Positions 14,014 through 63,938 of a stretch of DNA of 64,000 nt are shown piece after piece. The translations under genes were made by a program, and so were the position numbers. Origin of the DNA: a virus. How positions within the stretch are numbered: position 1 is the first letter of the stretch; every line of letters starts with the position of its first letter. The DNA lies in the IMG/VR virus record IMGVR_UViG_3300017991_000051, positions 62,001 to 126,000 of that record. One strand, given 5' to 3'. The notes beneath the pieces were generated by a model that made no database searches, was not told the DNA's origin, and was given only the letters and a program-made list of their open reading frames with translations.

Positions 14014-14030
14014 ATCACCCTCTACACAGG

Positions 14031-14349: not shown

Positions 14350-14351
14350 CC

Positions 14352-17210: not shown

Positions 17211-17214
17211 AATC

Positions 17215-17777: not shown

Positions 17778-17778
17778 C

Positions 17779-18645: not shown

Positions 18646-18679
18646 GTGAAACCTCCTCCGTAAAGCACATACAAAGAAA

Positions 18680-18703: not shown

Positions 18704-18721
18704 CTAACATCATTCCATTGT

Positions 18722-18749
18722 ATTATGCCGTAAATTGCCGCCGGTTTAA
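18722..18749 (-). promoter_or_regulatory. Possible promoter, TTAAAC-16-CATAAT
   Basis: On the minus strand TTAAAC (18744-18749) and CATAAT (18722-18727) at 16-base spacing; the -35 overlaps the stop of the upstream gene. CGGCATAATA is shared with the site at 17749. Confidence 0.42.
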
Positions 18750-19015: not shown

Positions 19016-19026
19016 TATCTCCTCCT

Positions 19027-27319: not shown

Positions 27320-27342
27320 GATATTTCCTCCATATGCAGCCG

Positions 27343-27371
27343 TAAGATTCTGTAACGCAATACAAACTCTA
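27343..27371 (-). repeat. Recurrent intergenic element (copy 2)
   Basis: After a TAA stop on the minus strand: TTTGTA, 6 bases, TACAGAATCTTACGG. The two halves can pair over six bases (one G-U). It lies in the leader of the 561-aa gene. Confidence 0.4.
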
Positions 27372-44074: not shown

Positions 44075-46876
44075 TTATACCACCAAGTGGACTTCCACGT
44101 TGTTCAGTGGCTCCGGCAGATCCAGATCCAACACGATCACCACACGGTCATGCAGTGTCGGATGTCGCTGGATGCTGACGATGTCTCCGCTAATCAGCTG
44201 ACCACCCACGGTCGGCAGATTAGAATTGTTCACCAAGTAATCGATCGCATCGGTGATTTCAGCGCGCAGCTGGTTCATGGTCTGCTCCGTCACATTGGAG
44301 ATACCAATGTACGGTGCCACCTGCGCGAGGATCACGTAGCTGATCGAATCCAAGTTGGCGCTGATCATTTCCTCCCTGCTGTTGAGATCGGTCATGTCCG
44401 TTGTAAGGTCGTGTCGGACATAGATCTCGCCAGCTGGGGATTCGGTGACGATGCATGTACCGGAAGCGGCCATTGTATCCAGCTCGTCTTCCGTGAACAT
44501 CTCGGTCGTCCGCTCGACGGAGTCGACGCCGGCGACTGCAACGTTGGTCAGGCTCCTCTGAGGGGCCGTACCGGACCGCAAACCCGCGAGGGCCGCTGCC
44601 AGGTAGAAGCCAGACACCAGATCGGTGCCGCTCTCGAAGTAGTCAGGCCAGACGTTGGACACACGCCGGTTCGAGAAGTGTGCGCTGCCGGCTGCAACCG
44701 CGGCCGCCATCTCGGCGTCGCTGAGGTCGCGCCAGATCTCGATCTTGGCTGCGACACTGATCGGGGACGATGGACCGGTCAGGAGCCGGACGCTGTCCTC
44801 CGACAGTACGGCATCGATCGTGTACTCGCTGTACGTCACGTTCCCGAAACCGTCGGTGGAGTACTGTGCCCGGACCTTGTCGCCGGCAATCACACCCGCC
44901 GTGATGATATCGACGTCGGTCGTGATCTCCACCAGCGTGTACTGCAGTCCGCTTGTGCCCGGATCGTCGGTGATCGTCGCGAGGACGGGGTCGCCGCTCG
45001 AATCCGCGGTCACGATCCCGCTCTCTTCCGCCAGCTCCGTGGATGTCCACATACGCCGCCAGCGACCGAACTCTGCGGCGCTCATGGCGTCACAGTGAGC
45101 TGCCACCGCGTCGTGGATAGCGGTCGTGAAGGTCATCGGCACGAGGCCGTGCACGTCGTTACGCTGCGTCAGCTTGCCCAGCGCGGCGTTGTAGCCCGCC
45201 AGATCGTCGGTTGGCACGCAGATGTACTTGACGTCCGTCCCGTTCGAATTCAGGAGGGCCATGTACACACCGTACGCAACCGGGTTGTCGACCGACAGCG
45301 TACCGAGCGCTGCTGCGAGGGCGCTGGTGAGGCTGATGGTGCCGACGGCAGTGCAACAGCCTTGCAGGAGAGCCCTGTAATAGACCCATGCATCCCCGCC
45401 CTTTACTGGGAGAGGCAGCATGACACCGTCGTCGTCCACCCACGTCGAATCGTAGGAGAGGATGCCGTCCGCCAGGCAGATCTCTGTGGCGGAGGTCGTC
45501 CAGTTGACGATAGGTGCGAAGCCGGTCCGGTCTTCCGGCACCTCGATATCCTTCTGGATATACAGAGTAACGGAGAGGTCGGGCACCGTCGCACATACGC
45601 CGGCGTCGTTCAGGCCGATAAGGTCGTCAGGCAGGTTGTGACCGAGCACCAGCGTCCGGATAGCACCGGCTGCTGGAGCCGTAACCGGAATGTAGTACCT
45701 GTCGCCCCTGTAGAGACCTTGGCCGGCCCCGATAAGCGATGTGAATCGGATCGTGACCCCGTAGGAGCCGATCGCAACATTCGTGTCCAGTGCGGCCACG
45801 GAATGCGGTCCGCTGGAGTCGATACCGGTTGTCGTCGAGATGGTGACCTGCGGGGTGCTCGCACCGCCGAACATACCACCTGTGGTAACCTCGATGACGT
45901 ACGTGGTGTCGGAGGGCCCACTGTAGGTACCGCCGGACACAGGATCCACGTCCACGGCGCCGAAGTTGACCGTCAGTTCCCACTTCATACCGTCGACGAA
46001 GATGTCCGCGCCTGCACGGGTCCACGTCACGCTGAGGCTCTTGTTACCGAACGGCGTCGCAACGCCCCAGTCGTTTGGTGTCAGTTCCGCCGTATCATCG
46101 GTACCGCTGGCGCTCGTCACACGGATAATCGCATCCGCCGGCGCGCCGCCGACAATGACTTCCAGCGTATACTCATCGGATTGAACACCGTCAATGTATC
46201 CCTGCTCCGGATGGTCTGGGGGAGTCGCCGCATCCGTGATGTCCACGGAATTGCCGGCAAAGCCGATCTTGTCGATGACGATGGAGGGGTTGATAGACGA
46301 AGATTCGTCGAGAGGTGCGGATTCGTTGTTCGGATCCTCTACGGCATCCCCAACAACACCGGGGATCTCGTCGGCCATGAAACCGGCCACGTAGGTCCAC
46401 AGTGTCACGGTCTCGGCGCCGATGACGGCTTCCACCTTGGCGATATCGCCGACGGTCACGTCACGGTTGCGGAGGGCCGCAGCGCGCGCGTACGCGCCGG
46501 AGGTCACCCAGTTGGTGTTCGCAGCCCGAATGGCGTTCTTGACTTGAGGATCACCCACCACGTCGGGCAGGTTGCAGAAAGTAGCTTGGATTTCATCGCC
46601 GGTACTGGCTGGGTTGTGGAAGTACTGGAGCAGCGCGTCATCAATAAACACCCGGGTCCAGTCCTGATCCACCACCGCGCCCGCCGAACGATTCGGCCAG
46701 CTGTAACATGTTTCGGAGTTCGGATCGTACTCTCCGAGTGCTCCCTGTGCAGCAGTCGTCACCAGCTCATAATTCGGCCCTATGATACACGCCCGCAGCG
46801 GTTCCGTAATCGCCGTAGGCAACAGGGTGAACTCCTGGTAGACAAGTGCTTGTGGTACTACGTATGATGTAGGCAT
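44075..46876 (-). CDS. Tail sheath protein
   Basis: A 933-residue protein. The N-terminal PTSYVVPQALVYQEF and C-terminal segment (LISGDIVSIQRHPTLHDRVVIVLD... LPEPLNNVEVHL) are the characteristic ends of contractile tail sheath proteins, with several beta domains and long inserts in between. It is larger than the usual 400-700 residues. The RBS GGAGGAAAACG precedes the ATG. It is followed by the tube gene. Confidence 0.85.
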   Translation of the reverse strand: MPTSYVVPQALVYQEFTLLPTAITEPLRACIIGPNYELVTTAAQGALGEYDPNSETCYSWPNRSAGAVVDQDWTRVFIDDALLQYFHNPASTGDEIQATFCNLPDVVGDPQVKNAIRAANTNWVTSGAYARAAALRNRDVTVGDIAKVEAVIGAETVTLWTYVAGFMADEIPGVVGDAVEDPNNESAPLDESSSINPSIVIDKIGFAGNSVDITDAATPPDHPEQGYIDGVQSDEYTLEVIVGGAPADAIIRVTSASGTDDTAELTPNDWGVATPFGNKSLSVTWTRAGADIFVDGMKWELTVNFGAVDVDPVSGGTYSGPSDTTYVIEVTTGGMFGGASTPQVTISTTTGIDSSGPHSVAALDTNVAIGSYGVTIRFTSLIGAGQGLYRGDRYYIPVTAPAAGAIRTLVLGHNLPDDLIGLNDAGVCATVPDLSVTLYIQKDIEVPEDRTGFAPIVNWTTSATEICLADGILSYDSTWVDDDGVMLPLPVKGGDAWVYYRALLQGCCTAVGTISLTSALAAALGTLSVDNPVAYGVYMALLNSNGTDVKYICVPTDDLAGYNAALGKLTQRNDVHGLVPMTFTTAIHDAVAAHCDAMSAAEFGRWRRMWTSTELAEESGIVTADSSGDPVLATITDDPGTSGLQYTLVEITTDVDIITAGVIAGDKVRAQYSTDGFGNVTYSEYTIDAVLSEDSVRLLTGPSSPISVAAKIEIWRDLSDAEMAAAVAAGSAHFSNRRVSNVWPDYFESGTDLVSGFYLAAALAGLRSGTAPQRSLTNVAVAGVDSVERTTEMFTEDELDTMAASGTCIVTESPAGEIYVRHDLTTDMTDLNSREEMISANLDSISYVILAQVAPYIGISNVTEQTMNQLRAEITDAIDYLVNNSNLPTVGGQLISGDIVSIQRHPTLHDRVVIVLDLDLPEPLNNVEVHLVV

Positions 46877-47592: not shown

Positions 47593-47773
47593 GTAGTACG
47601 TCCTCCCACTCCGGCTCGTAGTTCAATGAAATCAGCGGCAACATCCTCGTCCCCTGTGTCCGCTCACGCCTACGCTCCCTCCTGCGGGAGGGTGGAGGCG
47701 CCGGCTCGGGCGAAGCCGGCGCACTCACGGGCGGTGACGGGCTGGCACCGGGGTTGAAAGTCTTGCGCGCCAT
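47558..47773 (-). CDS. Hypothetical protein, 71 aa
   Basis: A small Pro/Ser/Arg-rich protein, mostly disordered. Preceded by GGAGAG. It overlaps the next gene by 35 bases. Not recognised. Confidence 0.5.
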   Translation of the reverse strand: MARKTFNPGASPSPPVSAPASPEPAPPPSRRRERRRERTQGTRMLPLISLNYEPEWEDVLHELGIPNNRRN

Positions 47774-47780
47774 TTACTCT

Positions 47781-47810
47781 CCAAAGATTGTCTAGCAATG
47801 ATACAAAATC
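47781..47810 (-). repeat. Recurrent intergenic element (copy 3)
   Basis: After the TAA stop at 47811: GATTTTGTATCATTGCTAG, then ACAATCTTTGG on the minus strand. It is similar to the elements at 14062 and 27343 and ends in the leader of the 71-aa gene. Confidence 0.38.
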
Positions 47811-48644
47811 TTAGAACCTGTCCACCTTCACGATCGCATCGAAAATGAGGTGGTCCCACTCCTCGAGCGCCTTCGGGATCAGCGCAGCGTTGTCCATCGC
47901 CCACCCCTTCTTCCGCTCGAACTGGATCCGGAGATGTTTCTTCAGCGGAAGATTGGTCACGAAGTACTCGTGCATCTTATTCGCCGCACCCGACAACAGG
48001 ATGCTTAGTATGAACCGCCCCCACTTCAGCACCGTCCACCACTTCGTGGACCCGACGGTGTTGTTCTTGCAGCGTTCACCGGTTCCGATCGAGCACAGCT
48101 CCAGCTCCGACAGCGACACCCCCAGCTTGGCGATGGAACCAACGGTGGCGACCATGGCCGGATTGTTCGCGAACGGTCCACCGTCCGCCAGGCCCTTCCA
48201 CGGCAGGAAGTAGCCTTCGGCGGCCACGGCCATGCGCACGACCTCCCACAACCACAGCTCGCCGTCCTCCGAGTCGCCGGAGAAGAAGACCTTGAGGGTC
48301 TCTCGATTCAAATCCGCCGCGGTAATGAAAAGCGGCACCTTCACGTCCTTCAACTTCCCCGGGAAGAGGGACTTCAGCGCCGCATTCAGCTCCTTGTCGG
48401 AGTAGCGGGGCGTGAACGGGTTGAACCGCTTCCACGTATAGCCGGCAAATATCTTCGGCGCCTTCTCGAGGAAGAAGTCCATGAACTGCGCTTGATCGAT
48501 CTTCGTGGCGATGGACGCGCCGACGATGGCTCCCACCGACGTGCCGGCCACGAAGTCGAACTTATCCAAATCCTTGACTTGGCTCAGGATCGACGCCTGC
48601 CCCACACCGAACACCCCGCCCCCGTCTAGTGCTAAACCTTTCAT
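47811..48644 (-). CDS. Patatin-like phospholipase
   Basis: 277 residues with the full catalytic signature of patatins: DGGG (residues 7-10, oxyanion hole), GTSVG with Ser36 as nucleophile, and LADGGPFANNP with Asp154. These make a Ser-Asp dyad that hydrolyses membrane lipids. The ATG at 48644 has GGAG upstream. The protein has no signal peptide, so it would act from the cytoplasm on the inner membrane. It could take part in lysis, membrane remodelling or interference with host signalling; the phage role is not known. It lies next to an HNH nuclease. Confidence 0.82.
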   Translation of the reverse strand: MKGLALDGGGVFGVGQASILSQVKDLDKFDFVAGTSVGAIVGASIATKIDQAQFMDFFLEKAPKIFAGYTWKRFNPFTPRYSDKELNAALKSLFPGKLKDVKVPLFITAADLNRETLKVFFSGDSEDGELWLWEVVRMAVAAEGYFLPWKGLADGGPFANNPAMVATVGSIAKLGVSLSELELCSIGTGERCKNNTVGSTKWWTVLKWGRFILSILLSGAANKMHEYFVTNLPLKKHLRIQFERKKGWAMDNAALIPKALEEWDHLIFDAIVKVDRF

Positions 48645-48960
48645 CACTACGCTCCACTGTCTTTCGCTGTTCGCATAACTCCCTGACGTTCTCCACGTAC
48701 CGCGTGGCGAAGCTACGGTTATGACCGACGATCAGATGGCACCGCCGGCACAACGTTATGAAGTTGTCCGGATCCAACGCCAGCGACTCGTCCGCCCACA
48801 ACGGAACGATGTGATGCGCCTGCAGCTTCTTTATCGCACCACACCAGCAACAGTAAGGCTCCTTCTCGATGTGCTGCCTGCATGCCTTACGCACCCTCCA
48901 CGTCCTCGTGGGGTACTTCACCACGTAGGACCAGTTCCGTGTCTCCAACGTTGTAAACAC
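48562..48960 (-). CDS. HNH endonuclease
   Basis: 132 residues. CxxC (37/38-40), LQAHHIVP (His49-His50), DNFITLC with Asn66, and CRRCH (71-75) give a complete HNH motif with zinc-binding Cys pairs. Overlaps the patatin gene by 83 bases. It could be a homing-type nuclease or a DNA-processing enzyme; nothing nearby identifies it as terminase-linked. Confidence 0.82.
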   Translation of the reverse strand: MFTTLETRNWSYVVKYPTRTWRVRKACRQHIEKEPYCCWCGAIKKLQAHHIVPLWADESLALDPDNFITLCRRCHLIVGHNRSFATRYVENVRELCEQRKTVERSDERFSTRRGRGVRCGAGVDPEPSQGFG

Positions 48961-49277
48961 TATGCCTTCTTCTTCAGGCGGTAATGCGGAACATTCTTCA
49001 GTCGACCATTAACCATGATCCTGAACTGCTTCATCTCCGCCATACCGCTGTTCACCATCGTCTGCACGTAGCGATTCACTACCGAATGACTCTTCTGCAT
49101 CACAGCCACCAGCTCGCGCATGGGATGCCAATCAGGTGGCACTTCATCCAAGTCCGGCATAGTCGCCTCCGCCGCCGCGCTCACCCACGCCTCGATGTCA
49201 TCTTGTGACATCTTCACGTTTAGAGTTTCACGGTGCGGGCTTTTTGACGCTTTAGATCTGCGAGATGCGCCTGCCAT
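48960..49277 (-). CDS. Hypothetical protein, 105 aa, helical
   Basis: Starts behind a GGAGG that lies inside the phosphoesterase gene. It has a basic N terminus and a helix-rich remainder with a possible helix-turn-helix (VMQKSHSVVNRYVQTMVNSG) and a basic C terminus. May bind DNA. Overlaps the upstream gene by 58 bases. Confidence 0.55.
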   Translation of the reverse strand: MAGASRRSKASKSPHRETLNVKMSQDDIEAWVSAAAEATMPDLDEVPPDWHPMRELVAVMQKSHSVVNRYVQTMVNSGMAEMKQFRIMVNGRLKNVPHYRLKKKA

Positions 49278-50044
49278 ACGTAACCTCCATCCGGATTGAC
49301 ATCGAAGTGTACAAACCCGTAGTTAACACGTCCAGAACACTTACGTGCACCGAACTTGGTTCCCATCGCCTGCAACGCCGGCGTCGTCATAGCCAGCACG
49401 TCGTCTTCGCCACAGAACACGTGATAGTGTACGTGGCTGCGTATGATGACGTCGCCTTTCGGCTGCTCCTTGTGGTCCGACCACAGGCAGTTCCACAGGC
49501 GATCGCGCGCCAGTGCCGTGTAACGGCCGTGCGGAATCTGCGACGACCCGATATGGTGTTTCACATCGAATACGCAACCGTTCACGTCCACCCACTCGTG
49601 ACTCCCGATCTTCACCGACTTGACGCCCTTCACGTCGCGCAACCGATCGGCGATGATGTCTTCAAAGTCTTCCTTGTCGCCCGTATGATACGGGGTGCCG
49701 TAGGTGAGCACATAGTGCTTTGCCTTGAGCTGCTTAAGCACGTCCAGCGCCATGTCCACCTGCGTAATCCTGTTCGTTGTAATCAGCTCTGTACCGCCCG
49801 ATCGCTCGCCGCGACCATCAATCATATCCGCATTGAAGATCACGACATCGAAAGGCCCCGTTGCATTGGTCTCCTTCTCGAACCAGTTCCACGACTCGCG
49901 CTCGAGATCCGCCGCCTTATCCCGCCACGTACCACGCTGCTTCGTGTACGTCATCTGATATTGCGGTGAGGTTAGACCAACCAAGTGGCCACAATGTGAG
50001 TCGGAGAAGATACCGACCCGTTTCGTTTTACGGCTACCACCCAT
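49220..50044 (-). CDS. Calcineurin-like metallophosphoesterase, degenerate, 274 aa
   Basis: Metal-binding pieces are FSDSHCGH, NADMIDG (instead of GD), GTPYHTG (instead of GNHD) and SHVHYH. The pattern resembles metallophosphoesterases, but two canonical positions differ, so activity is uncertain. GAAGGAGGG precedes the start. It is the first gene behind the promoter at 50101-50129. Confidence 0.7.
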   Translation of the reverse strand: MGGSRKTKRVGIFSDSHCGHLVGLTSPQYQMTYTKQRGTWRDKAADLERESWNWFEKETNATGPFDVVIFNADMIDGRGERSGGTELITTNRITQVDMALDVLKQLKAKHYVLTYGTPYHTGDKEDFEDIIADRLRDVKGVKSVKIGSHEWVDVNGCVFDVKHHIGSSQIPHGRYTALARDRLWNCLWSDHKEQPKGDVIIRSHVHYHVFCGEDDVLAMTTPALQAMGTKFGARKCSGRVNYGFVHFDVNPDGGYVWQAHLADLKRQKARTVKL

Positions 50045-50277
50045 CGTGATGCCCTCCTTCTATTCCATCCAGCAGAACTATTCCGCCGATGGTGCTGCTG
50101 ATTAAACAACAAAATAACTAAGCCGTCAAGCAACAAATTAAGGAAAAAAATAACTTATCAAATAGGCAAACGGCACGCCATATGACTAGCCAAAATAAAA
50201 GGCAAAACGCTATTACGCTGCTCCATACAAGCAGTGAGATGGCGCCGTGTAGTGCCCGTCGCCAATTCGCCCGTTTC
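50045..50277 (-). other. 233-base AT-rich intergenic region
   Basis: It is clearly more AT-rich than its surroundings between about 50100 and 50220 and contains no convincing coding frame. It carries a strong promoter (50101-50129), a leader and the RBS of the phosphoesterase gene, separating two transcription units. Confidence 0.65.
50101..50129 (-). promoter_or_regulatory. Sigma-70-type promoter, TTGACG-17-TTTAAT
   Basis: On the minus strand TTGACG (50124-50129) and TTTAAT (50101-50106) are 17 bases apart; each matches the consensus at five of six positions. It would start transcripts for the phosphoesterase, HNH and patatin genes and probably the tail genes behind them. Confidence 0.7.
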
Positions 50278-50655
50278 CTAGAACTCTGCATTGAGTGTCA
50301 GGGTGGCTGCACCGTTCGTACTGTTCACGAACCGAAGGGTGTCGCCGTCCCGGAAGTATACCCGCCCAGGTATGTACCATGTGACATGCGTCATGTTGGT
50401 CTCCGGTACGTTCAGCAACACGTTCGTCACGTCGTTGCGGACGTACGATACCGTAAACTCATTGGTCACCGGCTCCGGGAAGCTCAACAGTACAGACGTC
50501 AGATAGTACGGACGAACCGATGTACCTGTCACTGGGATCTCCAGCGTGCCGGAGATCGCTCGAGCCGTATTGAAAATGAAGGTGTCGCCGGCGATCGCTG
50601 CAACAGCGATCAGCAGCCCCACCAATACCAGCCGTATGATCTTTTGTCGCTTCAT
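50278..50655 (-). CDS. Small protein with Sec signal peptide, 125 aa
   Basis: N terminus MKRQKIIR, a hydrophobic core and AIA before GDTFIFN form a typical signal peptide. The mature part is about 100 residues, beta-rich (Thr, Val, Asn), without Cys. AAGGAG precedes it. No family recognised; it belongs to a set of four small and two very large products with export-type N termini here. Confidence 0.6.
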   Translation of the reverse strand: MKRQKIIRLVLVGLLIAVAAIAGDTFIFNTARAISGTLEIPVTGTSVRPYYLTSVLLSFPEPVTNEFTVSYVRNDVTNVLLNVPETNMTHVTWYIPGRVYFRDGDTLRFVNSTNGAATLTLNAEF

Positions 50656-50669
50656 GTTCGTATACTCCT

Positions 50670-51050
50670 TTACGGGAGGCGGCTCTTGCCAACCTTGATA
50701 GCAGCGCGCCTCCAGCGTACCATCTCCTGAATGCCGTTGGTCGAACCAAGCGCCTCAAGCGCGTTCTTCCACTGGGTCCGCGTGGCCTTGACCTCCAAAA
50801 ACTCAAGGAGTTCGCCGTCCACGTTTATTGGTACACGGTCGCCGGCCGCGTCGCGCAGCATCACCGCGAACTCGAAGGTGTTCTCGTTCAGATCTATGAA
50901 GATCCCGCGCTTCTTCTCGAGGCGTATGCTTTCGGGCGTCCGCGATACGGTCTGCTCCGTCGTGTACGATTCCTGCTGGTCGGCTCCCATAACTATGAAT
51001 GTCGCCACCAACAGTGCCAGGACTACGCCTGCTGTAATATACTTCTTCAT
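50670..51050 (-). CDS. Small protein with Sec signal peptide, 126 aa
   Basis: Begins MKKYITAGVV and a hydrophobic core, with a possible cleavage site at about residues 22-23 (VMGA, then DQQ). The mature part is a mixture of charged helix and beta segments. No homologue recognised. Confidence 0.58.
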   Translation of the reverse strand: MKKYITAGVVLALLVATFIVMGADQQESYTTEQTVSRTPESIRLEKKRGIFIDLNENTFEFAVMLRDAAGDRVPINVDGELLEFLEVKATRTQWKNALEALGSTNGIQEMVRWRRAAIKVGKSRLP

Positions 51051-51075
51051 CTTACCGTCTCCTTTTTCTCAAATA

Positions 51076-51402
51076 TTACTCCTGCTCCGTTTCCTCGAAC
51101 GCCGCATCGGCCTCCGCCTTAGCCGCATCGATGGCGGCGTTGACGGCGTCTACCCGCTTATGCTCGGCCAACGCTGTACGCCAGTACTCCAGAACGGCAG
51201 CGGTCGACGCGTCCTTAAACCGTGCTTGGTAGTCGCCGCCAGCGTTGTCCGGATCGATCTTCTCGTCTAGGAGTTCCTTGACCGCGTCAACTTCAAGGCT
51301 CTTGATCGTAATCTTAATCGTAAGATCGATGTCTGCCGCCCACGCAACAACAGCAATACCAACGACACCGACCAGAACCAATATCATCAGATGTTTCTTC
51401 AT
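51076..51402 (-). CDS. Small protein with Sec signal peptide, 108 aa
   Basis: MKKHLMILVLVGVV... AWA before ADIDLTIKIT is a good signal peptide with a clear cleavage site. The mature part starts with a short beta segment (DLTIKITIKS) and continues as a charged helix. Similar beta-start segments occur in some small phage proteins, but this one is exported. Confidence 0.6.
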   Translation of the reverse strand: MKKHLMILVLVGVVGIAVVAWAADIDLTIKITIKSLEVDAVKELLDEKIDPDNAGGDYQARFKDASTAAVLEYWRTALAEHKRVDAVNAAIDAAKAEADAAFEETEQE

Positions 51403-51422
51403 CTTACCGTCTCCTTGTCGTA

Positions 51423-51809
51423 TTATAGTTGATCGTATAGTGCTTTCGCCACACGAAGATGCGCGCGCTTAAGCGTCAGAAGAAATCCGACGTCATTCGT
51501 AGCCGCCGCGTAACCCTCTTGATTCAAACCCCACTTAAGGTTCGAGAGCGTGGGCGTCACCGCGTAGAACTCCTGATCCCCAGGGAGCTTGGTCATCTTG
51601 ACCACCGTCCCGTCAGCCTTCTGGAGCTGGACGACATACTCTTGGCTCCAGTCGTTAATGTCGTAGACGAGCTTTGTGTCGTCAGCGAACACCATCTTCG
51701 CCGGTGTTTGGTCGTAAGTTTGCGGCGTGTTGTAGTCGATGGACGTACCAAGGGAAATCCCCGCGATAAGCCCCGTTACCGTCATTATAATTGCATATCT
51801 GATCTTCAT
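51423..51809 (-). CDS. Small protein with N-terminal signal-like helix, 128 aa
   Basis: MKIRYAIIMTVTGLIAGISLG is a basic start and hydrophobic core; cleavage is less clear than in its neighbours, so it could also be a membrane anchor. The rest is soluble, beta-like. No family recognised. Confidence 0.55.
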   Translation of the reverse strand: MKIRYAIIMTVTGLIAGISLGTSIDYNTPQTYDQTPAKMVFADDTKLVYDINDWSQEYVVQLQKADGTVVKMTKLPGDQEFYAVTPTLSNLKWGLNQEGYAAATNDVGFLLTLKRAHLRVAKALYDQL

Positions 51810-51830
51810 TCTTAACCTTCTCCTTCTTCT

Positions 51831-54800
51831 TTACGGGCTTACCATTAACGTTCCCGTAGCGTTTGTATAAAGCAATCCCGATGCTCCGGCAGCACTAGGA
51901 AGCGGCAGTTGGAATATAACATTATGCACGGTAGCTGTCCCGTTTACAGTTAGACGGGTTGGTGCGTTCGTTGTTCCGACACCAGTATTCCCCTGCGCCT
52001 GTGACGCTGACTCGTCCCAGTTCAAGGCGATGTGGCCAAAGCCGCTCCCCGTGTTTGTACCGGGAGCCATGTGAATGTGTGCCCCTGCTGTGTAAACTGT
52101 AGCCGTCGGGCAAGCATCTGCGGCCTCGAACACGAAGTTGCTTTGAACCTCATCGTGATACCCGTCGGTGGCGATCACACGGAAGGCGTTCGGCATATTG
52201 TTCCTGTGGCCGTGAAGCGACATAGTAACGCCGAGGTTCTGACTCTCCTTGCCGCCATAGAGTATGAGGCTGTTCTGCGAGTTATTTCCGTCCGGTCGAA
52301 TGCCATAGCCCTTTAGGTATATCGACCCAACAAGCAACGACTGGTATATCCACGCATCACCATCCTTATCACAATTCATCCTAGTCGAACCAGAACCCGT
52401 CGTAACCTTCAATAAAACCTCGTTCACCGCTGGGTCCGCATTGTGGATATGCAGCATACAACTCGGATTATTGGTTCCGATACCCACCCAGTTCGTCGGT
52501 GATGTGCCGTACGCGTTCGTATAGTACAGATGTCCTAATGAGTTCTGCCCCCACGTCGAGTTAGCTGAAAGATACCGTAGATTCACACACTCGAGGTCGT
52601 TTGTCGGGTCGGCCGTCAAAAGATGGTTGTCGTTCGTCCACACCATGAACTCATCGAACCACACCGACTCATAGCGGAAGTTGGCGGTGTTGGTTCCGTG
52701 CGCCGTATAATCAGCGTTGTGGTTGTCCGACAGGACAAGCGCACCCACGAAACCGCCGCCCTGAGATCTGCGGCCACCCATGATCTGATAAGAAGCGTCA
52801 ACGTCATTCCCCTGACCGCCGATGATCGTGGCATAGTCTGAGTTTGCCGCCATGTCATTATCATCTCCACCACCAATGACAGAGTCAGTGCAGCCGTTAC
52901 CCACGCTGTGGTTACGACCGCCGCCTATCACGAGGTAGTCGGCTGTTGAGCCGATCTGGATAGACTGACCTGAGCCGATGAAGTTGTAGTCGGAGTTGAT
53001 ACCGCTCGACCAGCTTCGTCCGTGGTAGTTGTTGTCACTACCGTCAGCCGATCCGTACCGTCCACTGATCCGGCAGAACTTCACCTTTGAGGTCGTTTCG
53101 TTTCTGTAACCACGAATCCATGACCACTTGGAAGCGTTGACGACGTTGGAATGCCCGAAGACATCACACTCTTCCGCTGCGTTGCTAACAGCATTACTCT
53201 GACCACCTATCCGAGAGAAAATAACATCAGAAGCTACCGAGTGACCGCGCCCCAAGATCATGTTATTGGTTGCCGAGTTACCAGCATCGAGAACCTCTTG
53301 AAGTGTCCCAGCGCCACCGCCGCCGCCAGCAACCGCCATCGACTGGGTTACGGTGCCGTCCGCGGAGACATACAGAAGGTTTGTAGCGAGGTCACTTATC
53401 TTAGCCCCGCTCTCAAACACGAGCGAGTTGGACGCTATGTTGTATAGCGTATTTGACATGAAGTTGAAACCTGATGCAGCTGTAATCTGGAGCATAGTTG
53501 TGCCGTCGTACATGAACTTCCAGTAGCCACCACTCGCGGCAGTCTTCTCGATACCGGTGTCACCGTGCGTGATTGTCGTACCAGCAACGCCGTCAAACCA
53601 GAGCTGACTCCCAGCCTGCATTGTGCCGTCACCTTTCCACGCCAAGCCCCGGAAGCCACCGCCGTATGAATGGTAGTAGAGGCCGCCGTTCCAGACGTTC
53701 ATGGCCAGCGTCACGGTAATGCCGCTCCAATCAATAGCCGGCACACTTGCACTTCCGACATACAGATCGCCACCCCGGACGCGAAGGTCCCCTTGGTTGG
53801 TCGAGATACTGCTCAATCCGCCTGCTACGGTAAACGGCGCCGTAAGCGTAACATTCGGCTGAAGGTTCGTGATGCCGCCGCCCCCGCCTGAGATCATGCT
53901 GTTTGTGTTCGCCCCGTCCGCCGACACGTAGAAGATATCCGTCCCCCTCGAGAAAATGCGAGAGTTATCGTCACACACCAGCATCAGGTTAGTCGACACG
54001 TTTGTAATACCGTAGCTCGACATATTGATGTTCGTCACCGCGACCTCTACACCTACCAACGGGTTCGTGCTCACGCCGTTAGAGGACGTGTAGTAGATCT
54101 GCGTACCATCCACGGACAGCCGCGAACCGTCTACGAATTCAATCGATTCCGTGGCCACGTTCGTGATGCTGTACCCGCCAGCGTTAATATTCGTACTGGC
54201 AGGACGGTTGGCCCAGTAGTCGAAATAGGTCTTTTCCGTGATACTCCGCGTATACAGCCGGAGGTCCCCAGACACCCTGTCCTGATAGACGATGTAAAGC
54301 ACGTCGTCAATCAGTACCGAATCAAACTCGTTGTCGCAGTCGAGAGGGAGTCGCACGTACGTCATGGCGCTCACCTTGTAATCGCCACCCGCGAGTCGCG
54401 GCATCGTAAGCAGCACGAGGTCGGTGTCGGACACGGTGCCGGCACCGGTCCCGTCGTTCGGCTGGTAGAGAACGAGGACGTCGCCGTTAGTACGTACGTT
54501 TACGGAGATCGTAGCAGAGTCGGAAGGATCGGAGTCCTTGGGGCCCTTATAGGGGCTGGGAGCGAGCCCAGCGTCGTTCTGAGCGATCATGAACGACTCC
54601 CATGCCGTGTTCGTACCCTCACCAGGATACTGGAAGGCGAAGCCGAGGTTAGCGTTATCGGCCGTAATACCGTTACGGAACCAGAAGCCCTCGAAGACCG
54701 CGACCATCTGGTCGTTGTTAGTGTTACGCCCCAGCCTGACGGCGCTGAAGCCGAACGGGGCCTGATACGGCGAAACGCCGTTGTAGACGATCACGTTAGT

Positions 54801-55754
54801 AGTCGCCGGCCGCCCTCCGCTGACAGGCTGTTTCTCGTACATGATGCCGGTATTCCGCTTCTGATAGGCGACGTGGATGTTACTGTTCTCATCGATCAGC
54901 ATATCGATCGCATGCGAGTCACGACCGTCGTTCTCGCCATACACTTCAGGGGTCCCCCACGCGCCGCCGGAGCGCACATTGCGCCTGTTGTAGGTGGCTC
55001 CGCTGTTGTATCCGTTATCCTCACCCACGTGGTATAGAACGAACACGTCATCGTTGGTCTGCACCTGAATGATCTGCGGCCGTGTACCGTGCCGGGGGTT
55101 CCCGTCATCCACCTGCTCTTTCGCCAGCCACGCACCACTCTTCCGCGTATACTGAATAGAGGTATCGCCCTTAACACCATCGAGGTTCCACGCGATGTGG
55201 GGCTGATTGTTGGTATCGATATCGATGTCGACGGTCTTCCCCTTGTAATCATATGCCTTCGTCTGCCCAGTATCCTCGAGGCTCCACGAGGATAGGTTGT
55301 AGACGCCGTACCGGATCGTACTCGCGTCGGAGTAGGCAAGCACGAGCCAGCCGTTGGTGTCGACAGCAACCGCCGGGGAGTAACCGGCATCGCCCACAGG
55401 CGTATCATTCGTCACGTAGACTGTCTCGAGCCCGATGTCGCGATCGTTGATAACGCCGGAGAAGTCCTTCAGCTCAACGGAGTAGCGATTGCTGGCAGCA
55501 ACCCACACGGGATCCGTCTCGAGTCCAGGAAGGCCGGCGATCGTCACGTAATCGACCTTGGCAGTGGACCACACGGGATCCACCTCGACGCTGATACCGC
55601 CCCCGCCAGCGCCCGCGGTGTCGATCGGTCGCCCATTAACGTAGATGAAGCCGCCGCCGGTGGAAGGCTGCATTGTCGCAGACACAGCGCCTGCGAGCGC
55701 GAACAGGATCAAACTACCGACAATCAGCGGCAGTGCTTTGAATGGCCGTATCAT
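51831..55754 (-). CDS. Giant fibre/adhesin-like protein with Sec signal peptide, 1307 aa
   Basis: Signal peptide at the N terminus (basic MIRPFK, hydrophobic core, VSA before TMQPS). Residues about 100-520 look like repeated beta-propeller blades (segments such as PAVAVDTNGWLVLAYSDAS and IDENSNIHVAYQKR). A middle part has repeats of the type FVDGSRLSVDGTQIYYTS. Residues about 848-1018 contain strings of VIGGG and IGGQ units like the left-handed beta-roll of YadA-type adhesin heads. The C terminus is fibre-like (GNTGVGTTN). It shares modules with the next gene upstream. No membrane anchor is visible at the C terminus. Adhesion or receptor binding is likely; export is predicted from the N terminus only. 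Confidence 0.72.
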   Translation of the reverse strand: MIRPFKALPLIVGSLILFALAGAVSATMQPSTGGGFIYVNGRPIDTAGAGGGGISVEVDPVWSTAKVDYVTIAGLPGLETDPVWVAASNRYSVELKDFSGVINDRDIGLETVYVTNDTPVGDAGYSPAVAVDTNGWLVLAYSDASTIRYGVYNLSSWSLEDTGQTKAYDYKGKTVDIDIDTNNQPHIAWNLDGVKGDTSIQYTRKSGAWLAKEQVDDGNPRHGTRPQIIQVQTNDDVFVLYHVGEDNGYNSGATYNRRNVRSGGAWGTPEVYGENDGRDSHAIDMLIDENSNIHVAYQKRNTGIMYEKQPVSGGRPATTNVIVYNGVSPYQAPFGFSAVRLGRNTNNDQMVAVFEGFWFRNGITADNANLGFAFQYPGEGTNTAWESFMIAQNDAGLAPSPYKGPKDSDPSDSATISVNVRTNGDVLVLYQPNDGTGAGTVSDTDLVLLTMPRLAGGDYKVSAMTYVRLPLDCDNEFDSVLIDDVLYIVYQDRVSGDLRLYTRSITEKTYFDYWANRPASTNINAGGYSITNVATESIEFVDGSRLSVDGTQIYYTSSNGVSTNPLVGVEVAVTNINMSSYGITNVSTNLMLVCDDNSRIFSRGTDIFYVSADGANTNSMISGGGGGITNLQPNVTLTAPFTVAGGLSSISTNQGDLRVRGGDLYVGSASVPAIDWSGITVTLAMNVWNGGLYYHSYGGGFRGLAWKGDGTMQAGSQLWFDGVAGTTITHGDTGIEKTAASGGYWKFMYDGTTMLQITAASGFNFMSNTLYNIASNSLVFESGAKISDLATNLLYVSADGTVTQSMAVAGGGGGAGTLQEVLDAGNSATNNMILGRGHSVASDVIFSRIGGQSNAVSNAAEECDVFGHSNVVNASKWSWIRGYRNETTSKVKFCRISGRYGSADGSDNNYHGRSWSSGINSDYNFIGSGQSIQIGSTADYLVIGGGRNHSVGNGCTDSVIGGGDDNDMAANSDYATIIGGQGNDVDASYQIMGGRRSQGGGFVGALVLSDNHNADYTAHGTNTANFRYESVWFDEFMVWTNDNHLLTADPTNDLECVNLRYLSANSTWGQNSLGHLYYTNAYGTSPTNWVGIGTNNPSCMLHIHNADPAVNEVLLKVTTGSGSTRMNCDKDGDAWIYQSLLVGSIYLKGYGIRPDGNNSQNSLILYGGKESQNLGVTMSLHGHRNNMPNAFRVIATDGYHDEVQSNFVFEAADACPTATVYTAGAHIHMAPGTNTGSGFGHIALNWDESASQAQGNTGVGTTNAPTRLTVNGTATVHNVIFQLPLPSAAGASGLLYTNATGTLMVSP

Positions 55755-55769
55755 GGTCTTGCTCCGTAG

Positions 55770-58700
55770 CTACTTAACTTTTTCAACGATCAGCGACAGA
55801 TCAGTAAACTCCAACTGTCGTGCGCCGGCAAACGTATTGTATAATCGAATGTCAAGAACGTCACCATCTGCTAGGTCAACAATGCGTTGCCCAGAAATGC
55901 ACTGAGCCTCACCGGTATCAATAAACTGTCGCCCACCTATACGTCCGAGCTTCACACCGTCCTTATACGCATACACCTCGATGACGGTGGTCGCATCCGT
56001 ATCCAAGCTGCCCGACAGTGTCAACCTGTTCTGACCGGCGCTCGTAGCGCTCACAGTGATATTCGACGTGCTGACAGTATACCCGTCGGAGAAGCCCGCT
56101 GACAAGTTCGTTATGATGATCGTAGACGTCGCCCCAACGTTCTGCGTGCTCACGTACGTCGTACCCAGCTCACATATGTCGAAGACGTTGGTCAGCGTCT
56201 GGTAATTGACCGCCTGCTTGCCGCTCGACGCGTCCTCAACCTCCGTGGGGGACCCGACCAAGTAGAAGCCGTTGGTCATTCTCACGAGGAACTCTGAATC
56301 CTGCACCGATGTCATGAAGTTCCCGCCGTCGCCGTTCCAGTAGAAACCACGGTCGTGCTTGTTCAGAACCTCAACGCCCCTGCCGCCGACGAACACGTTA
56401 TCCCCGCGGTTGGTAAGTCCACGGCCAACCATGAACGACTCGGTACCGTTGTCGTAGATACGACTTCCGAACGCCGCGCTCCTGTCCGCCGTTCCGGTCA
56501 TAGTAATGGTATTTCCGCTCGCGAACGAGTCGGTGGCCTGCATTGAAATGGTATCACCACCGGCAGCACTGTTGTCACCACCGCTCGTGAACGTGACGAA
56601 GCGACCCCATATAACGTTCCGGCTGGAATCAACGCTCTGATTGGACCCAACCACAAGCCCCTGATTCGCACCGCTGTTCGCCGTGAGGGTGTTCCCAGCC
56701 ATCACCATCGCAAAGGCGCTCGCGTGTATGGAGCCGCCAGCCGACCGCAGCAGGATTACGCTGTTGGAGCTGGCGATATTGCCGCCGTCTAAGCACGATT
56801 GCAGGTTGCTGACCGACCCACCAGCGCTGGTAAGGAATCCTGCGTCGTTGTTGTAGGTCGACAGGTTGGTGGATGTCCCAGCCGTACCGACCACGATATA
56901 CGCATTGGTCTCGCCGTTTGTCGCAACCATGCTGATATTCGTACCATCGGACGTGATCCTCGAGCCGTCCGTGAACTCCAAGGACGAGGGCGCGATGTTG
57001 ATGATGCTCTTGCCCTTCACATCGATCACGTCGTTGCTCCACGAGAGCATGACCGTCGAGCCATCAGTATCACGCAACTCACGGTCCTCCCAGTCGATAG
57101 CAATCGCCGGCGTGGAGTCAGACAGATGACGGCTATCCCACTCAATCGATTCATTGAAGCTGTCATCGTACGCGGTGGTGAGGTTCCAATCCATGACGAT
57201 CGATGGGCCCGATACTTGGTAGAGGTACCGGTTGTTCCAGTCGAAAGAGGCAACGCCATTGGCGTCGAAGCTCTGCTGCTCATCCCAGTCCGTCACGATC
57301 GTCGTACCGTCCGCATCGTAACACTCGCGGTTCTGCCAATCGAGTGCGTCGTTGCCCGCTGTATCGTAGGCCACCTGCGTATCCCAATCCAGCACGATGG
57401 AGGTGCCGTCCGCATCCATTGCCTGCCGGTTCTGGTAATCGATTGCCGCATTCTCCGAGCTGTCAATAAGCTCACGCACTTCCCACCAGATCGAAGTATT
57501 GCCGGACGTATCGTAAGCGGCCGCATTGAACCAATCTACAATCTCGACCCCGACGCTGTCATACAGCTTCATCGCCTTCGGGTCCATCCGGTTGGTCAGG
57601 TTCAGCCCCTCGATGTAATAGGAGCCCTCTCCCACGTACACGTGCCGGAAGGGCCTGTCAACGGATCCCGCATCCAGCGTGTTGCTGGTTGCAGGTAGCA
57701 GATGTTTGTTGAGCTGTACGGCGCTGTTCGAATACGAGAACACCTTAGTTAAACCATCCTCGGCGTAGAACGTACGCTCATCCCATTCGAAACAGTTGAA
57801 GCCGCCTGCGTCATATGCCGTCCTGTTCGGCCAATCGATGGCCAAGTTGCCGGACGCATCGTTCAGGTAGCCATCATCCCACTCAACCATCTCGTTCGTG
57901 TAGCCGTCGAAGAGACCCATATTCTCGTAGTCGATGGTGTAACCGCCGGAGTCCTTGAATGCGCGCCGGTTGATGACGTGAATGCTGTAGTCCTCATCAT
58001 CGTCGTAGATGATTCCATTCTGCCAGTCGTAGGCCTTACCGACCGCGACCCCGAGACGGTAGAGTATCTTGTTTTCCCAGTCCAGTGACTGTTCGGTAAC
58101 GACGGATGTGTAAAGCTTCCGGTTGGACGCATCCACGTTCAGCGGCGTATCGAGAACGAAGTTGGTGCCGCCGACGGAGATGCTGCCGTTAGTAAGCCGT
58201 AGATCTGTGAAGACCTGGAAGAGATTATTCGACCACGCGAAGATCTTGGTTGTGCCGTTTTCCGCGTAACCTTCCCGGCCGTCCCAATTCAGCGACGTAT
58301 CTTGACCAGCGTCATTCAACGCCATGATATCCCAATCGAGGACAATGCTCCCGTTGTCATCCAGCAGGTTCTGCAAACCCCAGTCTATGATGGTGGTTGT
58401 CCCGTCCGTTTCGTACATCCTACGCAAGCCGTAATCGATGGACAGCGCAGGGGTAGTATCTGACAACTGCCTTTGTGACCAGTCCAAGGACACGTCCTGA
58501 TCCCCGTCGTTCAGGACCATCGTAAGCCAGTCAAGCACGATGTCACCGCCAGCATCAAACGCGGTTCCAAGGTTCCAGTCCAACGTGGCGACGCCGCCCG
58601 CCGTATATAACGTCATCGCCTTCGGATCCATCCGGTTCGTCAGGTTCAGGCCTTCGATGTAATAGGAACCGGGCCCAACATACACGTGCTTCACTGGGTT

Positions 58701-60104
58701 ATCGATGGAGCCGATGTTCACGACGTTACTGGCCCACGGGATCAGGTTGGAGTGCAGTGTGATCGACGTATCGTTCGTCCACGACAGCATCGGAGCCCCG
58801 TTGGTCCCGATCAGCGTCTTGTTCGGTAGATCCAGCCCCTCGACGTACAGCACGCGATAAATAGAGTTGGAGTCCGCATAAGTAACCTGCAGGTCCGGGT
58901 CCACGCGTCGCGGGTTGTACATGGAATACCCGACATCCATGGTACAGCTTGCTTGGAAGCCGGTGATGACACCCGTTATCTCACAATCCCTTATCACGAG
59001 ATCGCTGTTAATATTCTCCGGGATGGCGAGGCCTAAGATATGGCCGTTCAGCGTGCACTCGATCAACGTCAGGGACCCGTTATCAGATAGTGAGAAACAG
59101 TCAGTCGCTCCGTTGATCGTCATGTACGCAAAGGTGTTCGTATAGTTGATTGTCAACTCGGCCGGCGCCGGGAGGTTGACAGTTGTCGCATCCCGACCGG
59201 CGCCTACGACGGTCACGTCAGCACCGATGGAAGGCGTAAGTGTTCCGTATATGCCAGGCCCGACGGCCACAATATCGTTGGCTACAGCCGCGTTCAGAGC
59301 GCTGGTGAGGTTAGTTCCATACCCAGCCTTGAAGTCGCCAGTATGGGCATAGATCTTGATGCCGTGAGCGTTGTTGGTGATGAGAGACATAATGCTCTCG
59401 CCGCCGAGAAAGAGGTTGTTGAAGTAACCGGCGTTGAACGGCCGGTCACGGCGCCCGACGCTGAGCGTATTGCTCGTAGCGGGGAAGAAGTTCATCCCCG
59501 TCAGGAAGACACCGGACGTCGATATCGTCATGTACTCCGAAACGTTCGCATTGAACAGGCGTATCTCGCTGTCGACATTCGTACTCGTACCCAAGTACAG
59601 GTCGCCGTGGTCCGTATGATCAGCAGAGTACAGGAATATATATGCTCCCGCGTTCTGTGCCGCACCCACCGGCGGAAACTTGAGATCGAGGCGGCCACCC
59701 ACCGGACCCCATATGACGCTGTCCGCGTCCGTGAAGTACAGTTCATTAACGTTGGTGATGCCCTGTGAGTTAATGTCAACGGGCGCAAGTGCCGGATAGA
59801 AAGCCCACTGGGCAACAGCGTTCGTCAAACCGTTGGTAACGGACTGCCAGTTGGCAGCGTCGGTCGGGTTCACCGGATCGCCAAGGTTGAGGATCCGGAA
59901 GTTGGCCATATTCACGTTCTGGATCGCCGGCTTCGTCGACCATTCGGTGGCCACGCCGCCGGCCTTGACCTTGTTGAAGTTCCGATTGAGTTTGTTCCGA
60001 ACCTGCGTCATCGTATCATTCGGACGGATCGGTTCGAAATTGACCGCCCATACGGCGGTGGCCAACAGGGCGGCAATGGCAGCAACACTGATAAACTTCT
60101 TCAT
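55770..60104 (-). CDS. Giant repetitive fibre/adhesin-like protein with Sec signal peptide, 1444 aa
   Basis: Signal peptide MKKFISVAAIAALL... AVWA before VNFEP. Then a beta-helix-like region (about residues 255-390, with TVVGAGRDAT), and three arrays (27 units in my count) of a 16-17 residue repeat of the form LYDxxGxxxIDWxxR, at about 58230-58610, 57730-58110 and 57025-57567. Each array ends with an x-x-W/Y-SN motif. Residues about 1135-1245 look like YadA-type head repeats and the last about 110 residues a beta-sandwich (GYTVSTSNITVSA, LSLIVEKVK). It lies just downstream of the head/neck genes. Attachment to the virion or cell surface is not determined. Confidence 0.72.
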   Translation of the reverse strand: MKKFISVAAIAALLATAVWAVNFEPIRPNDTMTQVRNKLNRNFNKVKAGGVATEWSTKPAIQNVNMANFRILNLGDPVNPTDAANWQSVTNGLTNAVAQWAFYPALAPVDINSQGITNVNELYFTDADSVIWGPVGGRLDLKFPPVGAAQNAGAYIFLYSADHTDHGDLYLGTSTNVDSEIRLFNANVSEYMTISTSGVFLTGMNFFPATSNTLSVGRRDRPFNAGYFNNLFLGGESIMSLITNNAHGIKIYAHTGDFKAGYGTNLTSALNAAVANDIVAVGPGIYGTLTPSIGADVTVVGAGRDATTVNLPAPAELTINYTNTFAYMTINGATDCFSLSDNGSLTLIECTLNGHILGLAIPENINSDLVIRDCEITGVITGFQASCTMDVGYSMYNPRRVDPDLQVTYADSNSIYRVLYVEGLDLPNKTLIGTNGAPMLSWTNDTSITLHSNLIPWASNVVNIGSIDNPVKHVYVGPGSYYIEGLNLTNRMDPKAMTLYTAGGVATLDWNLGTAFDAGGDIVLDWLTMVLNDGDQDVSLDWSQRQLSDTTPALSIDYGLRRMYETDGTTTIIDWGLQNLLDDNGSIVLDWDIMALNDAGQDTSLNWDGREGYAENGTTKIFAWSNNLFQVFTDLRLTNGSISVGGTNFVLDTPLNVDASNRKLYTSVVTEQSLDWENKILYRLGVAVGKAYDWQNGIIYDDDEDYSIHVINRRAFKDSGGYTIDYENMGLFDGYTNEMVEWDDGYLNDASGNLAIDWPNRTAYDAGGFNCFEWDERTFYAEDGLTKVFSYSNSAVQLNKHLLPATSNTLDAGSVDRPFRHVYVGEGSYYIEGLNLTNRMDPKAMKLYDSVGVEIVDWFNAAAYDTSGNTSIWWEVRELIDSSENAAIDYQNRQAMDADGTSIVLDWDTQVAYDTAGNDALDWQNRECYDADGTTIVTDWDEQQSFDANGVASFDWNNRYLYQVSGPSIVMDWNLTTAYDDSFNESIEWDSRHLSDSTPAIAIDWEDRELRDTDGSTVMLSWSNDVIDVKGKSIINIAPSSLEFTDGSRITSDGTNISMVATNGETNAYIVVGTAGTSTNLSTYNNDAGFLTSAGGSVSNLQSCLDGGNIASSNSVILLRSAGGSIHASAFAMVMAGNTLTANSGANQGLVVGSNQSVDSSRNVIWGRFVTFTSGGDNSAAGGDTISMQATDSFASGNTITMTGTADRSAAFGSRIYDNGTESFMVGRGLTNRGDNVFVGGRGVEVLNKHDRGFYWNGDGGNFMTSVQDSEFLVRMTNGFYLVGSPTEVEDASSGKQAVNYQTLTNVFDICELGTTYVSTQNVGATSTIIITNLSAGFSDGYTVSTSNITVSATSAGQNRLTLSGSLDTDATTVIEVYAYKDGVKLGRIGGRQFIDTGEAQCISGQRIVDLADGDVLDIRLYNTFAGARQLEFTDLSLIVEKVK
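57570..57644. repeat. 75-base direct repeat in the giant fibre gene (copy A)
   Basis: Nearly identical to 58614-58688 (a limited number of base differences). It codes for the segment around NLTNRMDPKAM that starts an array of the LYD...DW repeats, and shows the protein grew by duplication. Confidence 0.7.
58614..58688. repeat. 75-base direct repeat in the giant fibre gene (copy B)
   Basis: Second copy of the 57570-57644 repeat, coding the same NLTNRMDPKAM-containing segment at the head of another array. Confidence 0.7.
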
Positions 60105-60116
60105 TCCTATCTCCCC

Positions 60117-60932
60117 CTAGCTGGAGCTTGATTCATGATCTTCAGGTCTCTCTAAACTGTACACTATATCCGTTGTAGGAGCAAGCCTCAGTTCCACGGG
60201 ATCGAAGATGAACGGGATGTCCCGGAAGTTGATTTCCTTCACCCGCTGCACGATGTACCGCTGATCCGAATCATACTTGATCCACACGTCCCCCGTGTCC
60301 AGCCAAGGACAGTTCAAGGCCCTCACAGGCCGCACACGGTCCTCGATGACCCCCTGACCCTCCGGCTGCGTCGTCGTCCGCCTGTTGACCCCCTGCGTGC
60401 TGTCAGCGACCCAGTAAACGAGGGGATCGAAGTAGCCGGCGACGAAGCCGGTGCCGAAGCAGTCCGGGCAGTGCGCGTTCTTCACCTCGCCGGTATCGTA
60501 GTCGAGGCAGGTGGGACATTGTGTACCCCACCGCTTCCTCTTATAGAGGTAGCCGCACATACCGGCGTACTTCTGAAGCCGGAGGGTCTCCTTCCGGATG
60601 ATCTCACGGTAGATGGGTAGGTCATGGTCCGACAAGTTGCCGACCATCTGCTTGTCCTCCGAATCGTAATTCACGCCATCGGCGGTCATACGTATCCGGT
60701 AGTACAGCCGCGGTGCCTTCCCGTACAGACGCCAGTTGGGGTCCTCAGCGATGTACTGGTCGGTTACCGTCGTAACGGTCTCCCAGGCACCGGCTGTGGT
60801 GCGGGAGACCATTACGCGGAAGGTGAGAGGACCTGTCGATCTGAACATGGGATGGAGATCCCATGCCAACAGCGCGCCGCCACGCATGCGGTAGTATACT
60901 TCAAACCTATTGAATACAGGAATGTCTGCCAT
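60117..60932 (-). CDS. Probable head-neck protein with Cys pairs, 271 aa
   Basis: Start at 60932 (MADIPVFNRFEVYY), below a hairpin element. Contains CGYLYKR, TQCPTCLDY and AHCPDCFGTGFVAGYF, a zinc-ribbon-like pattern of a type found in phage neck or head proteins, and ends HESSSS. Location beside the neck/head genes supports a connector role. Assignment by motif and position. Confidence 0.6.
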   Translation of the reverse strand: MADIPVFNRFEVYYRMRGGALLAWDLHPMFRSTGPLTFRVMVSRTTAGAWETVTTVTDQYIAEDPNWRLYGKAPRLYYRIRMTADGVNYDSEDKQMVGNLSDHDLPIYREIIRKETLRLQKYAGMCGYLYKRKRWGTQCPTCLDYDTGEVKNAHCPDCFGTGFVAGYFDPLVYWVADSTQGVNRRTTTQPEGQGVIEDRVRPVRALNCPWLDTGDVWIKYDSDQRYIVQRVKEINFRDIPFIFDPVELRLAPTTDIVYSLERPEDHESSSS

Positions 60933-60950
60933 CGTACCCGCCCGTAAATT

Positions 60951-60966
60951 GTGTAGCACGCTACAC
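60951..60966 (-). other. Perfect hairpin ahead of the neck gene
   Basis: GTGTAGC, two bases, GCTACAC. On the minus strand it is followed by AATTTACGG and then the RBS region and ATG of the gene at 60932. The AATTTACGG part resembles the flanks of the promoter-like site at 18722. Confidence 0.42.
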
Positions 60967-63848: not shown

Positions 63849-63864
63849 GACTTTACCTCTTGTT

Positions 63865-63915
63865 GGTTGTTCACAACCTTGTTTGGTTCCAGCGGCCATT
63901 ACGACCGCCGGAACC
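63865..63915 (-). other. Paired hairpins in the capsid leader
   Basis: GGTTGT/ACAACC at 63865-63878 and GGTTCC-GCGG/CCGC-GGAACC (mismatch inside) at 63885-63915, directly upstream of the capsid RBS. They may stabilise the capsid mRNA or mark a processing site. Confidence 0.45.
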
Positions 63916-63938
63916 GGCACGTTATTGGCCACAATTAG

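What the first reader, a model, noticed from the sequence alone, without database searches (positions are those of the whole stretch)
50278..60104. Run of six consecutive genes whose products begin with Sec-type signal peptides
Six adjacent genes (50278, 50670, 51076, 51423, 51831, 55770) each start with a basic end, a hydrophobic core and, in five of them, a good cleavage site (AIA, VMG/A, AWA, VSA, VWA). Two encode giant fibre-like proteins. Virion proteins of tailed phages are normally assembled in the cytoplasm and lack signal peptides, so a contiguous block inside the head-tail genes suggests a set of exported products: possibly an exported adhesion system, host surface modification, or superinfection exclusion. 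The export itself is a prediction from the N termini.
Basis: partly seen in the sequence, partly recalled or inferred. Interest (0 to 1): 0.85.

Follow-up and report, generated by a model that had tools for sequence, protein, structure and literature searches.

The report
Phage fibre genes with export signals
A large uncultured phage and two relatives carry, in a slot that is nearly empty in 40 other related phages, a block of genes whose products (giant fibre-like proteins and small companions) bear export signals, so the infected cell probably sends phage-made fibres out through its envelope, which virion proteins of tailed phages normally do not do.

Summary
The six genes are exactly where stated, each has a ribosome-binding site, and each starts with a Sec-type signal peptide (five strong; 51423-51809 has a weak cleavage site). 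A rule-based predictor of 176 genes in this 169-kb phage (false-positive rate 0.2-0.5%); a run of six never occurred in 200,000 label shuffles.

The block is not core head-tail material. It is part of a 12.5-kb accessory island between a neck-type gene and the tail-sheath gene. In 40 related records this slot is 0.5-2.4 kb and holds no signal-peptide gene. In the clan-mates G003 and G002 the neck side of the slot also holds signal-peptide giants, with little or no sequence similarity to those here. A third such giant (21874-25626) sits where eight relatives keep a conserved distal-tail module that this phage lacks entirely. Repeats in one giant match chromosomal, signal-peptide-bearing, fibre-like proteins of Verrucomicrobiota.

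Best reading: a late-transcribed, Sec-exported fibre module acting outside the cytoplasmic membrane. What it does there (surface coat or adhesin, or fibres that join the virion after lysis) is inference. Export is predicted, not shown; host and function are unproven.

The parts
47593..60116 (-). Accessory island between the conserved gene 46900-47592 (sheath side) and the neck-type gene 60117-60959
   Evidence: slot is 543-2438 bases, median 1427, in 40 relatives against 13.2 kb here
55770..60104 (-). SP-bearing giant fibre-like protein, 1444 aa; 16-17-residue D-W repeats in three blocks
   Evidence: no Pfam family, no homolog in INPHARED phages
51831..55754 (-). SP-bearing giant fibre-like protein, 1307 aa; shares a 59-aa module (46%) with the 1444-aa protein; residues 905-1033 carry GGG-N repeats found in cellular fibre-like proteins
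51423..51809 (-). SP-like small protein, 128 aa, weak cleavage site; paralog of 50670-51050
51076..51402 (-). SP-bearing small acidic protein, 108 aa
   Evidence: only sub-threshold family hits
50670..51050 (-). SP-bearing small protein, 126 aa; 27% identical over 99 aa to 51423-51809
50278..50655 (-). SP-bearing small Thr-Asn-rich protein, 125 aa; possible counterpart of the small SP protein in G003
   Evidence: similarity not significant by BLASTP
49220..50044 (-). Metallophosphatase-like protein without SP, island cargo, 58% identical in G003 at the same slot
   Evidence: type of enzyme judged from sequence, no Pfam hit
48960..49277 (-). Small HTH-like protein without SP, homolog in G003 (31%)
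48562..48960 (-). HNH endonuclease
47811..48647 (-). Patatin-like phospholipase without SP, 34% identical in G002 at the same slot
60117..60959 (-). Neck-type gene, upstream border of the island
   Evidence: conserved next to the slot in the relatives
44075..46876 (-). Tail sheath protein, downstream side of the slot
21874..25626 (-). Third SP-bearing giant, 1250 aa, at the place of the distal-tail module of the relatives
   Evidence: start lacks a strong ribosome-binding motif

Best explanation
The block is the export part of an accessory island in a large contractile-tailed phage. Six genes, in line with and 12 nt behind a neck gene, are probably transcribed late. Their products carry Sec/signal-peptidase-I signals, are secreted through the host's Sec system and cleaved. 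The two giants fold outside the cytoplasm into elongated fibres resembling those that some Verrucomicrobiota secrete themselves; the small proteins act as periplasmic or surface partners. The fibres coat the infected cell and what it leaves at lysis, acting in adhesion or receptor masking rather than in the head-tail particle. Shown: gene order, start sites, SP-like N termini, accessory status, recurrence in two relatives, shared repeats with cellular SP-bearing fibre-like proteins. Inferred: late expression, actual export and cleavage, crossing of an outer membrane, and the surface function.
For: Six of six N termini with ribosome-binding motifs; run not expected by chance; exactly six SP genes in this slot, two in G003, one in G002, none in 40 relatives; SP kept in three phages whose giants share no significant overall similarity; 12-25 nt spacing behind the neck gene, no convincing promoter or terminator between; repeats of the 1307-aa giant in SP-bearing chromosomal proteins of 7 of 388 Verrucomicrobiota genomes, one with Peptidase_S74; Thr-Asn skew confined to the SP set, 17.0 against 1.9 per 1000 aa; no tyrosine integrase, so a lysogenic role is less likely.
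Against: No experiment and no SignalP run. No visible anchor, and no known route through an outer membrane. One of six lacks a good cleavage site. The missing distal-tail module points to a virion role instead. Host unknown. Only three records with the island, two of them truncated within it.
Confidence: 0.5

Rival explanations
1. The SP giants are the phage's own adhesion fibres: exported and cleaved, then joined to the tails outside the cytoplasm, after lysis or in a leaking envelope.
For: G000 lacks the five distal-tail proteins that follow the homolog of 25634-27433 in all eight relatives covering that region, and an SP giant sits in exactly that place; fibre-like repeats; late operon position.
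Against: No precedent known to me for Sec-exported tail fibres in a tailed phage. The 887-aa protein 27894-30557 has a 360-aa insertion that could supply receptor binding without export. G002 and G003 do not cover the tail region, so the link rests on one genome.
Confidence: 0.2
2. The N-terminal segments are hydrophobic anchors or assembly peptides of ordinary virion proteins; nothing is exported.
For: The genes lie among virion genes; 51423-51809 lacks a good cleavage site.
Against: Six proteins of different sequence all have the basic end, core and mostly the AXA site; the relatives' distal-tail proteins do not have them; the SP set alone has the Thr-Asn skew.
Confidence: 0.1
3. The small SP proteins are periplasmic superinfection-exclusion or lysis-control proteins and the giants are separate cargo.
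For: Small periplasmic phage proteins are a known kind (T4 spackle, from general knowledge); two of the four are paralogs.
Against: Late operon position instead of early; all six share one transcription direction and spacing with the giants; G003 likewise pairs a small SP protein with an SP giant; no family match.
Confidence: 0.12
4. The block is an assembly artefact or a passing capture of host genes.
For: Metagenomic record; one giant's repeats resemble cellular proteins.
Against: Phage genes on both sides, a 95-bp repeat shared by the record's ends, even composition, and two independent records with the same kind of genes at the same junction.
Confidence: 0.04

Closest known systems
PblA/PblB of Streptococcus mitis prophage SM1 (PMC2920869)
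   Same: Phage-encoded proteins that end up on the bacterial surface and act as adhesins; their tail-related nature is from general knowledge
   Different: Their surface display depends on phage holin and lysin (PMC2920869), in a Gram-positive lysogen; here each product has its own signal peptide and no tyrosine integrase was found
Chromosomal SP-bearing YQGRL / GGG-N-repeat proteins with Peptidase_S74 (Verrucomicrobiota genomes)
   Same: Signal peptide, size, repeat type and the Thr-Asn over Asn-Thr skew
   Different: Cellular; the phage giants lack YQGRL and Peptidase_S74
Tail fibres of contractile-tailed phages
   Same: Repeat-rich, elongated-looking, near tail genes
   Different: Virion fibres normally lack signal peptides; the distal-tail proteins of relatives in this very group lack them too
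Phage morons and superinfection-exclusion envelope proteins (general knowledge)
   Same: Accessory genes in a variable slot among virion genes
   Different: Those are usually one or two small genes with their own promoter; this is a six-gene run including two giants, without a convincing promoter of its own

Membership tests
Sec/SPI-exported proteins | Basic end, hydrophobic core, small residues at -3 and -1 | tested here: met
   five of six fully, the sixth without a good site
Sec/SPI-exported proteins | Actual export and cleavage | not testable with these tools
   needs fusions or N-terminal peptides
Accessory (moron-like) phage cargo | Absent from most relatives at a constant site | tested here: met
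   40 relatives without it at the same slot
Accessory (moron-like) phage cargo | Own promoter and terminator | tested here: inconclusive
   promoter-like sites 13 found against 9.5 expected, terminator-like 9 against 11.3; none placed convincingly at the block's start
PblA/PblB-type phage adhesins | Surface display through holin and lysin | not tested
   here signal peptides are predicted instead; PMC2920869 for the mechanism
PblA/PblB-type phage adhesins | Carried by an integrating prophage | tested here: not met
   no PF00589 integrase in G000 or nine relatives; serine recombinases not searched
SP-bearing S74 fibre-like proteins of bacteria | Peptidase_S74 C terminus | tested here: not met
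   no Pfam family in either giant; present in the cellular L194 protein
SP-bearing S74 fibre-like proteins of bacteria | GGG-N head-like repeats after a signal peptide | tested here: met
   1307-aa giant, residues 905-1033, E down to 3e-11 in G177
Virion tail fibres | Present in the particle | not testable with these tools
   needs virion proteomics

The most novel reading that the evidence does not exclude
A tailed phage lineage has given up its cytoplasmic distal fibres and makes its adhesion fibres as Sec-secreted proteins that are finished outside the cytoplasmic membrane and meet the virion at or after lysis: a tailed virus with a periplasmic or extracellular assembly step.
Probability: 0.15. 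Interest if true: 0.9.

Novelty: new variant of a known kind. Interest (0 to 1): 0.62.

Why it matters
Tailed phages are thought to build their particles in the cytoplasm and to send out at most a few small envelope proteins. A dedicated operon that exports giant fibres late in infection would mean that a phage builds something on or around its host, with consequences for adhesion, aggregation and receptor access in uncultured bacteria. It also offers a clean comparison: the same genomic slot with the island in three phages and without it in 40 related records.

Tried and rejected
Homologs of the giants in INPHARED phages: none. Homologs of the 1444-aa giant in viral contigs or in 388 Verrucomicrobiota genomes: none. 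Family names for the small proteins: only sub-threshold hits. Similarity of 50278 to the G003 small protein: alignable by MAFFT, not significant by BLASTP, so kept as 'possible'. Metallophosphatase as a marker of the island: it also occurs in about 20 other phage contigs, without such a block nearby, though gene calling on those short loci was poor. Thr-Asn skew as a general mark of a host secretome: weak in ordinary secreted proteins of the sampled genomes, so not claimed as proof of host. Reverse transcriptase of a diversity-generating element: none found. Two AlphaFold jobs without alignment gave pLDDT 36 and 50, so no fold search was run. Early superinfection exclusion: disfavoured by the operon position. 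The strict predictor settings missed four of seven textbook signal peptides, so counts in relatives were repeated with looser settings.

Full report
What was checked. The window is positions 62001-126000 of a 169,252-base virus record whose ends share a 95-bp repeat. It is a contractile-tailed phage: major capsid protein at 62880-63932, tail sheath at 44075-46876. Each start is preceded by a Shine-Dalgarno-like motif; 50670-51050 and 51076-51402 have the same leader, AAGGAGACGGTAAG. Five have a full signal peptide with a good cleavage site; 51423-51809 has the basic end and core but a weak site.

Is it more than chance? With a rule-based predictor (false-positive rate 0.2% on internal segments, 0.46% on shuffled N termini; five of six calls right on 50 kb of E. 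coli K-12), 9 of 176 genes of this phage are called, six of them consecutive. In 200,000 shuffles of the labels the longest run was 5, twice. SignalP itself was not available.

Where the block lies. Relatives were found through the capsid protein and the neck-type protein at 60117-60959. In 40 records with both borders in view, the distance from neck gene to sheath gene is 543-2438 bases (median 1427), and a mechanical scan of all starts with a ribosome-binding motif finds no signal-peptide gene in it. The same scan in this phage finds exactly the six, over 13.2 kb. Some of the 40 are near-identical to each other. Gene calling is less reliable on short loci: in L222 it missed an SP gene beside the sheath that it had found in the full record G009, so the mechanical slot scan is the number to trust. 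The gene 46900-47592 is conserved at the border, so the island is about 47593-60116.

The two relatives that share it. G003 (capsid 77% identical) has, after its neck gene, a metallophosphatase-like gene (58% identical to 49220-50044), an HTH-like gene (31%), a small SP protein and an SP giant that runs off the contig. G002 (capsid 61%) has a patatin (34% identical to 47811-48647), an SP giant of 902 aa, one other ORF and a weaker SP protein of 224 aa, then the contig ends. The giants of the three phages have no significant overall similarity, yet all keep the signal peptide. Just after it, the 1444-aa giant (DTMTQVRNKLNRNFNKV) and the G002 giant (RTDSFRKAREKVNYNFTVL) share a short pattern that I recall from tail-fibre proteins; that is memory, not a test. 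A tree of capsid, neck and a third protein puts G000, G003, G002 and L127 on one side of a well-supported split (0.998). L127 has no island in the slot (0.86 kb) but carries a Thr-Asn-rich SP protein of 221 aa right beside its capsid gene.

A missing tail module. In all eight relatives that cover the region, distal-tail proteins (WLNxNxxRxYP family and neighbours, five genes in L127) follow the homolog of 25634-27433. None has a match anywhere in G000. In that exact place G000 has the SP giant 21874-25626, whose start, however, has no strong ribosome-binding motif. G002 and G003 do not reach this region, so it is unknown whether they too lack the module.

What the giants are. The 1444-aa protein has 16-17-residue D-W repeats in three blocks. 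It shares a 59-aa module (46%) with the 1307-aa protein. Residues 905-1033 of the latter match repeats in 7 of 388 Verrucomicrobiota genomes. The cellular proteins are large; several visibly start with a signal peptide followed by 'YQG'; some sit among ordinary chromosomal genes; one ends in Peptidase_S74, a chaperone domain of phage fibres. Thr-Asn is found 17.0 times per 1000 aa in the SP set against 1.9 elsewhere in the phage (Asn-Thr 6.2 and 1.8); in the matched cellular proteins 10.7 against 5.4 for Asn-Thr. SP-bearing, Thr-Asn-rich proteins also turn up in the otherwise unrelated phage contigs L109 and L124, so the phenomenon may be wider.

How it most likely works. The six genes are spaced 14-25 nt apart, in line with the neck gene and 12 nt behind it, with no convincing promoter or terminator between. 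Late transcription with the virion genes follows (inference). The products would be exported by the host's Sec system (predicted), and the giants would form fibres outside. No anchor is visible, and crossing of an outer membrane is unexplained. I commit to an extracellular fibre module that dresses the infected cell and its remains (0.5), with virion fibres finished outside the cytoplasm as the main rival (0.2).

Comparison. The nearest precedent I know is PblA/PblB of phage SM1, whose display on the cell surface depends on holin and lysin (PMC2920869). Searches of an open-access library found no report of a signal-peptide-bearing fibre operon in a tailed phage; this is a limited search, not proof of absence.

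Limits. No experiment, no SignalP, failed structure models, unknown host, and only three records with the island, two of them truncated.

Noticed in passing
window 21874-25626 and 25634-27433: The distal-tail protein module that follows the 25634 homolog in eight relatives has no match anywhere in this phage; an SP-bearing giant holds its place.
   Followed up: partly
SP-bearing proteins of G000, G002, G003, L127, L109, L124: The dipeptide Thr-Asn is strongly enriched over Asn-Thr in SP-bearing proteins only; the reason is unknown.
   Followed up: partly
window 27894-30557: The 887-aa tail protein has a 360-aa insertion (residues 321-680) that its homologs in the relatives lack; it could be a receptor-binding domain.
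   Followed up: no
window 48960-50044: The metallophosphatase-like gene recurs in about 20 phage contigs of other kinds.
   Followed up: partly
G001 4021-19720 (L014): The relative G001 encodes several SP-bearing proteins near one contig end that look cohesin- or dockerin-like by eye.
   Followed up: no
G009 82459-83214 (L075): An SP-bearing 251-aa protein lies directly beside the sheath gene, on the side away from the slot.
   Followed up: no
L127, L128, L129: Contigs of this phage group sit in bacterial bins labelled Methylococcales, Zixibacteria and Akkermansia; binning of phage contigs is unreliable, so the host stays open.
   Followed up: partly
window 19884-21992: A glycosyltransferase family 9 gene follows the third SP giant, with a homolog in G001.
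   Followed up: no
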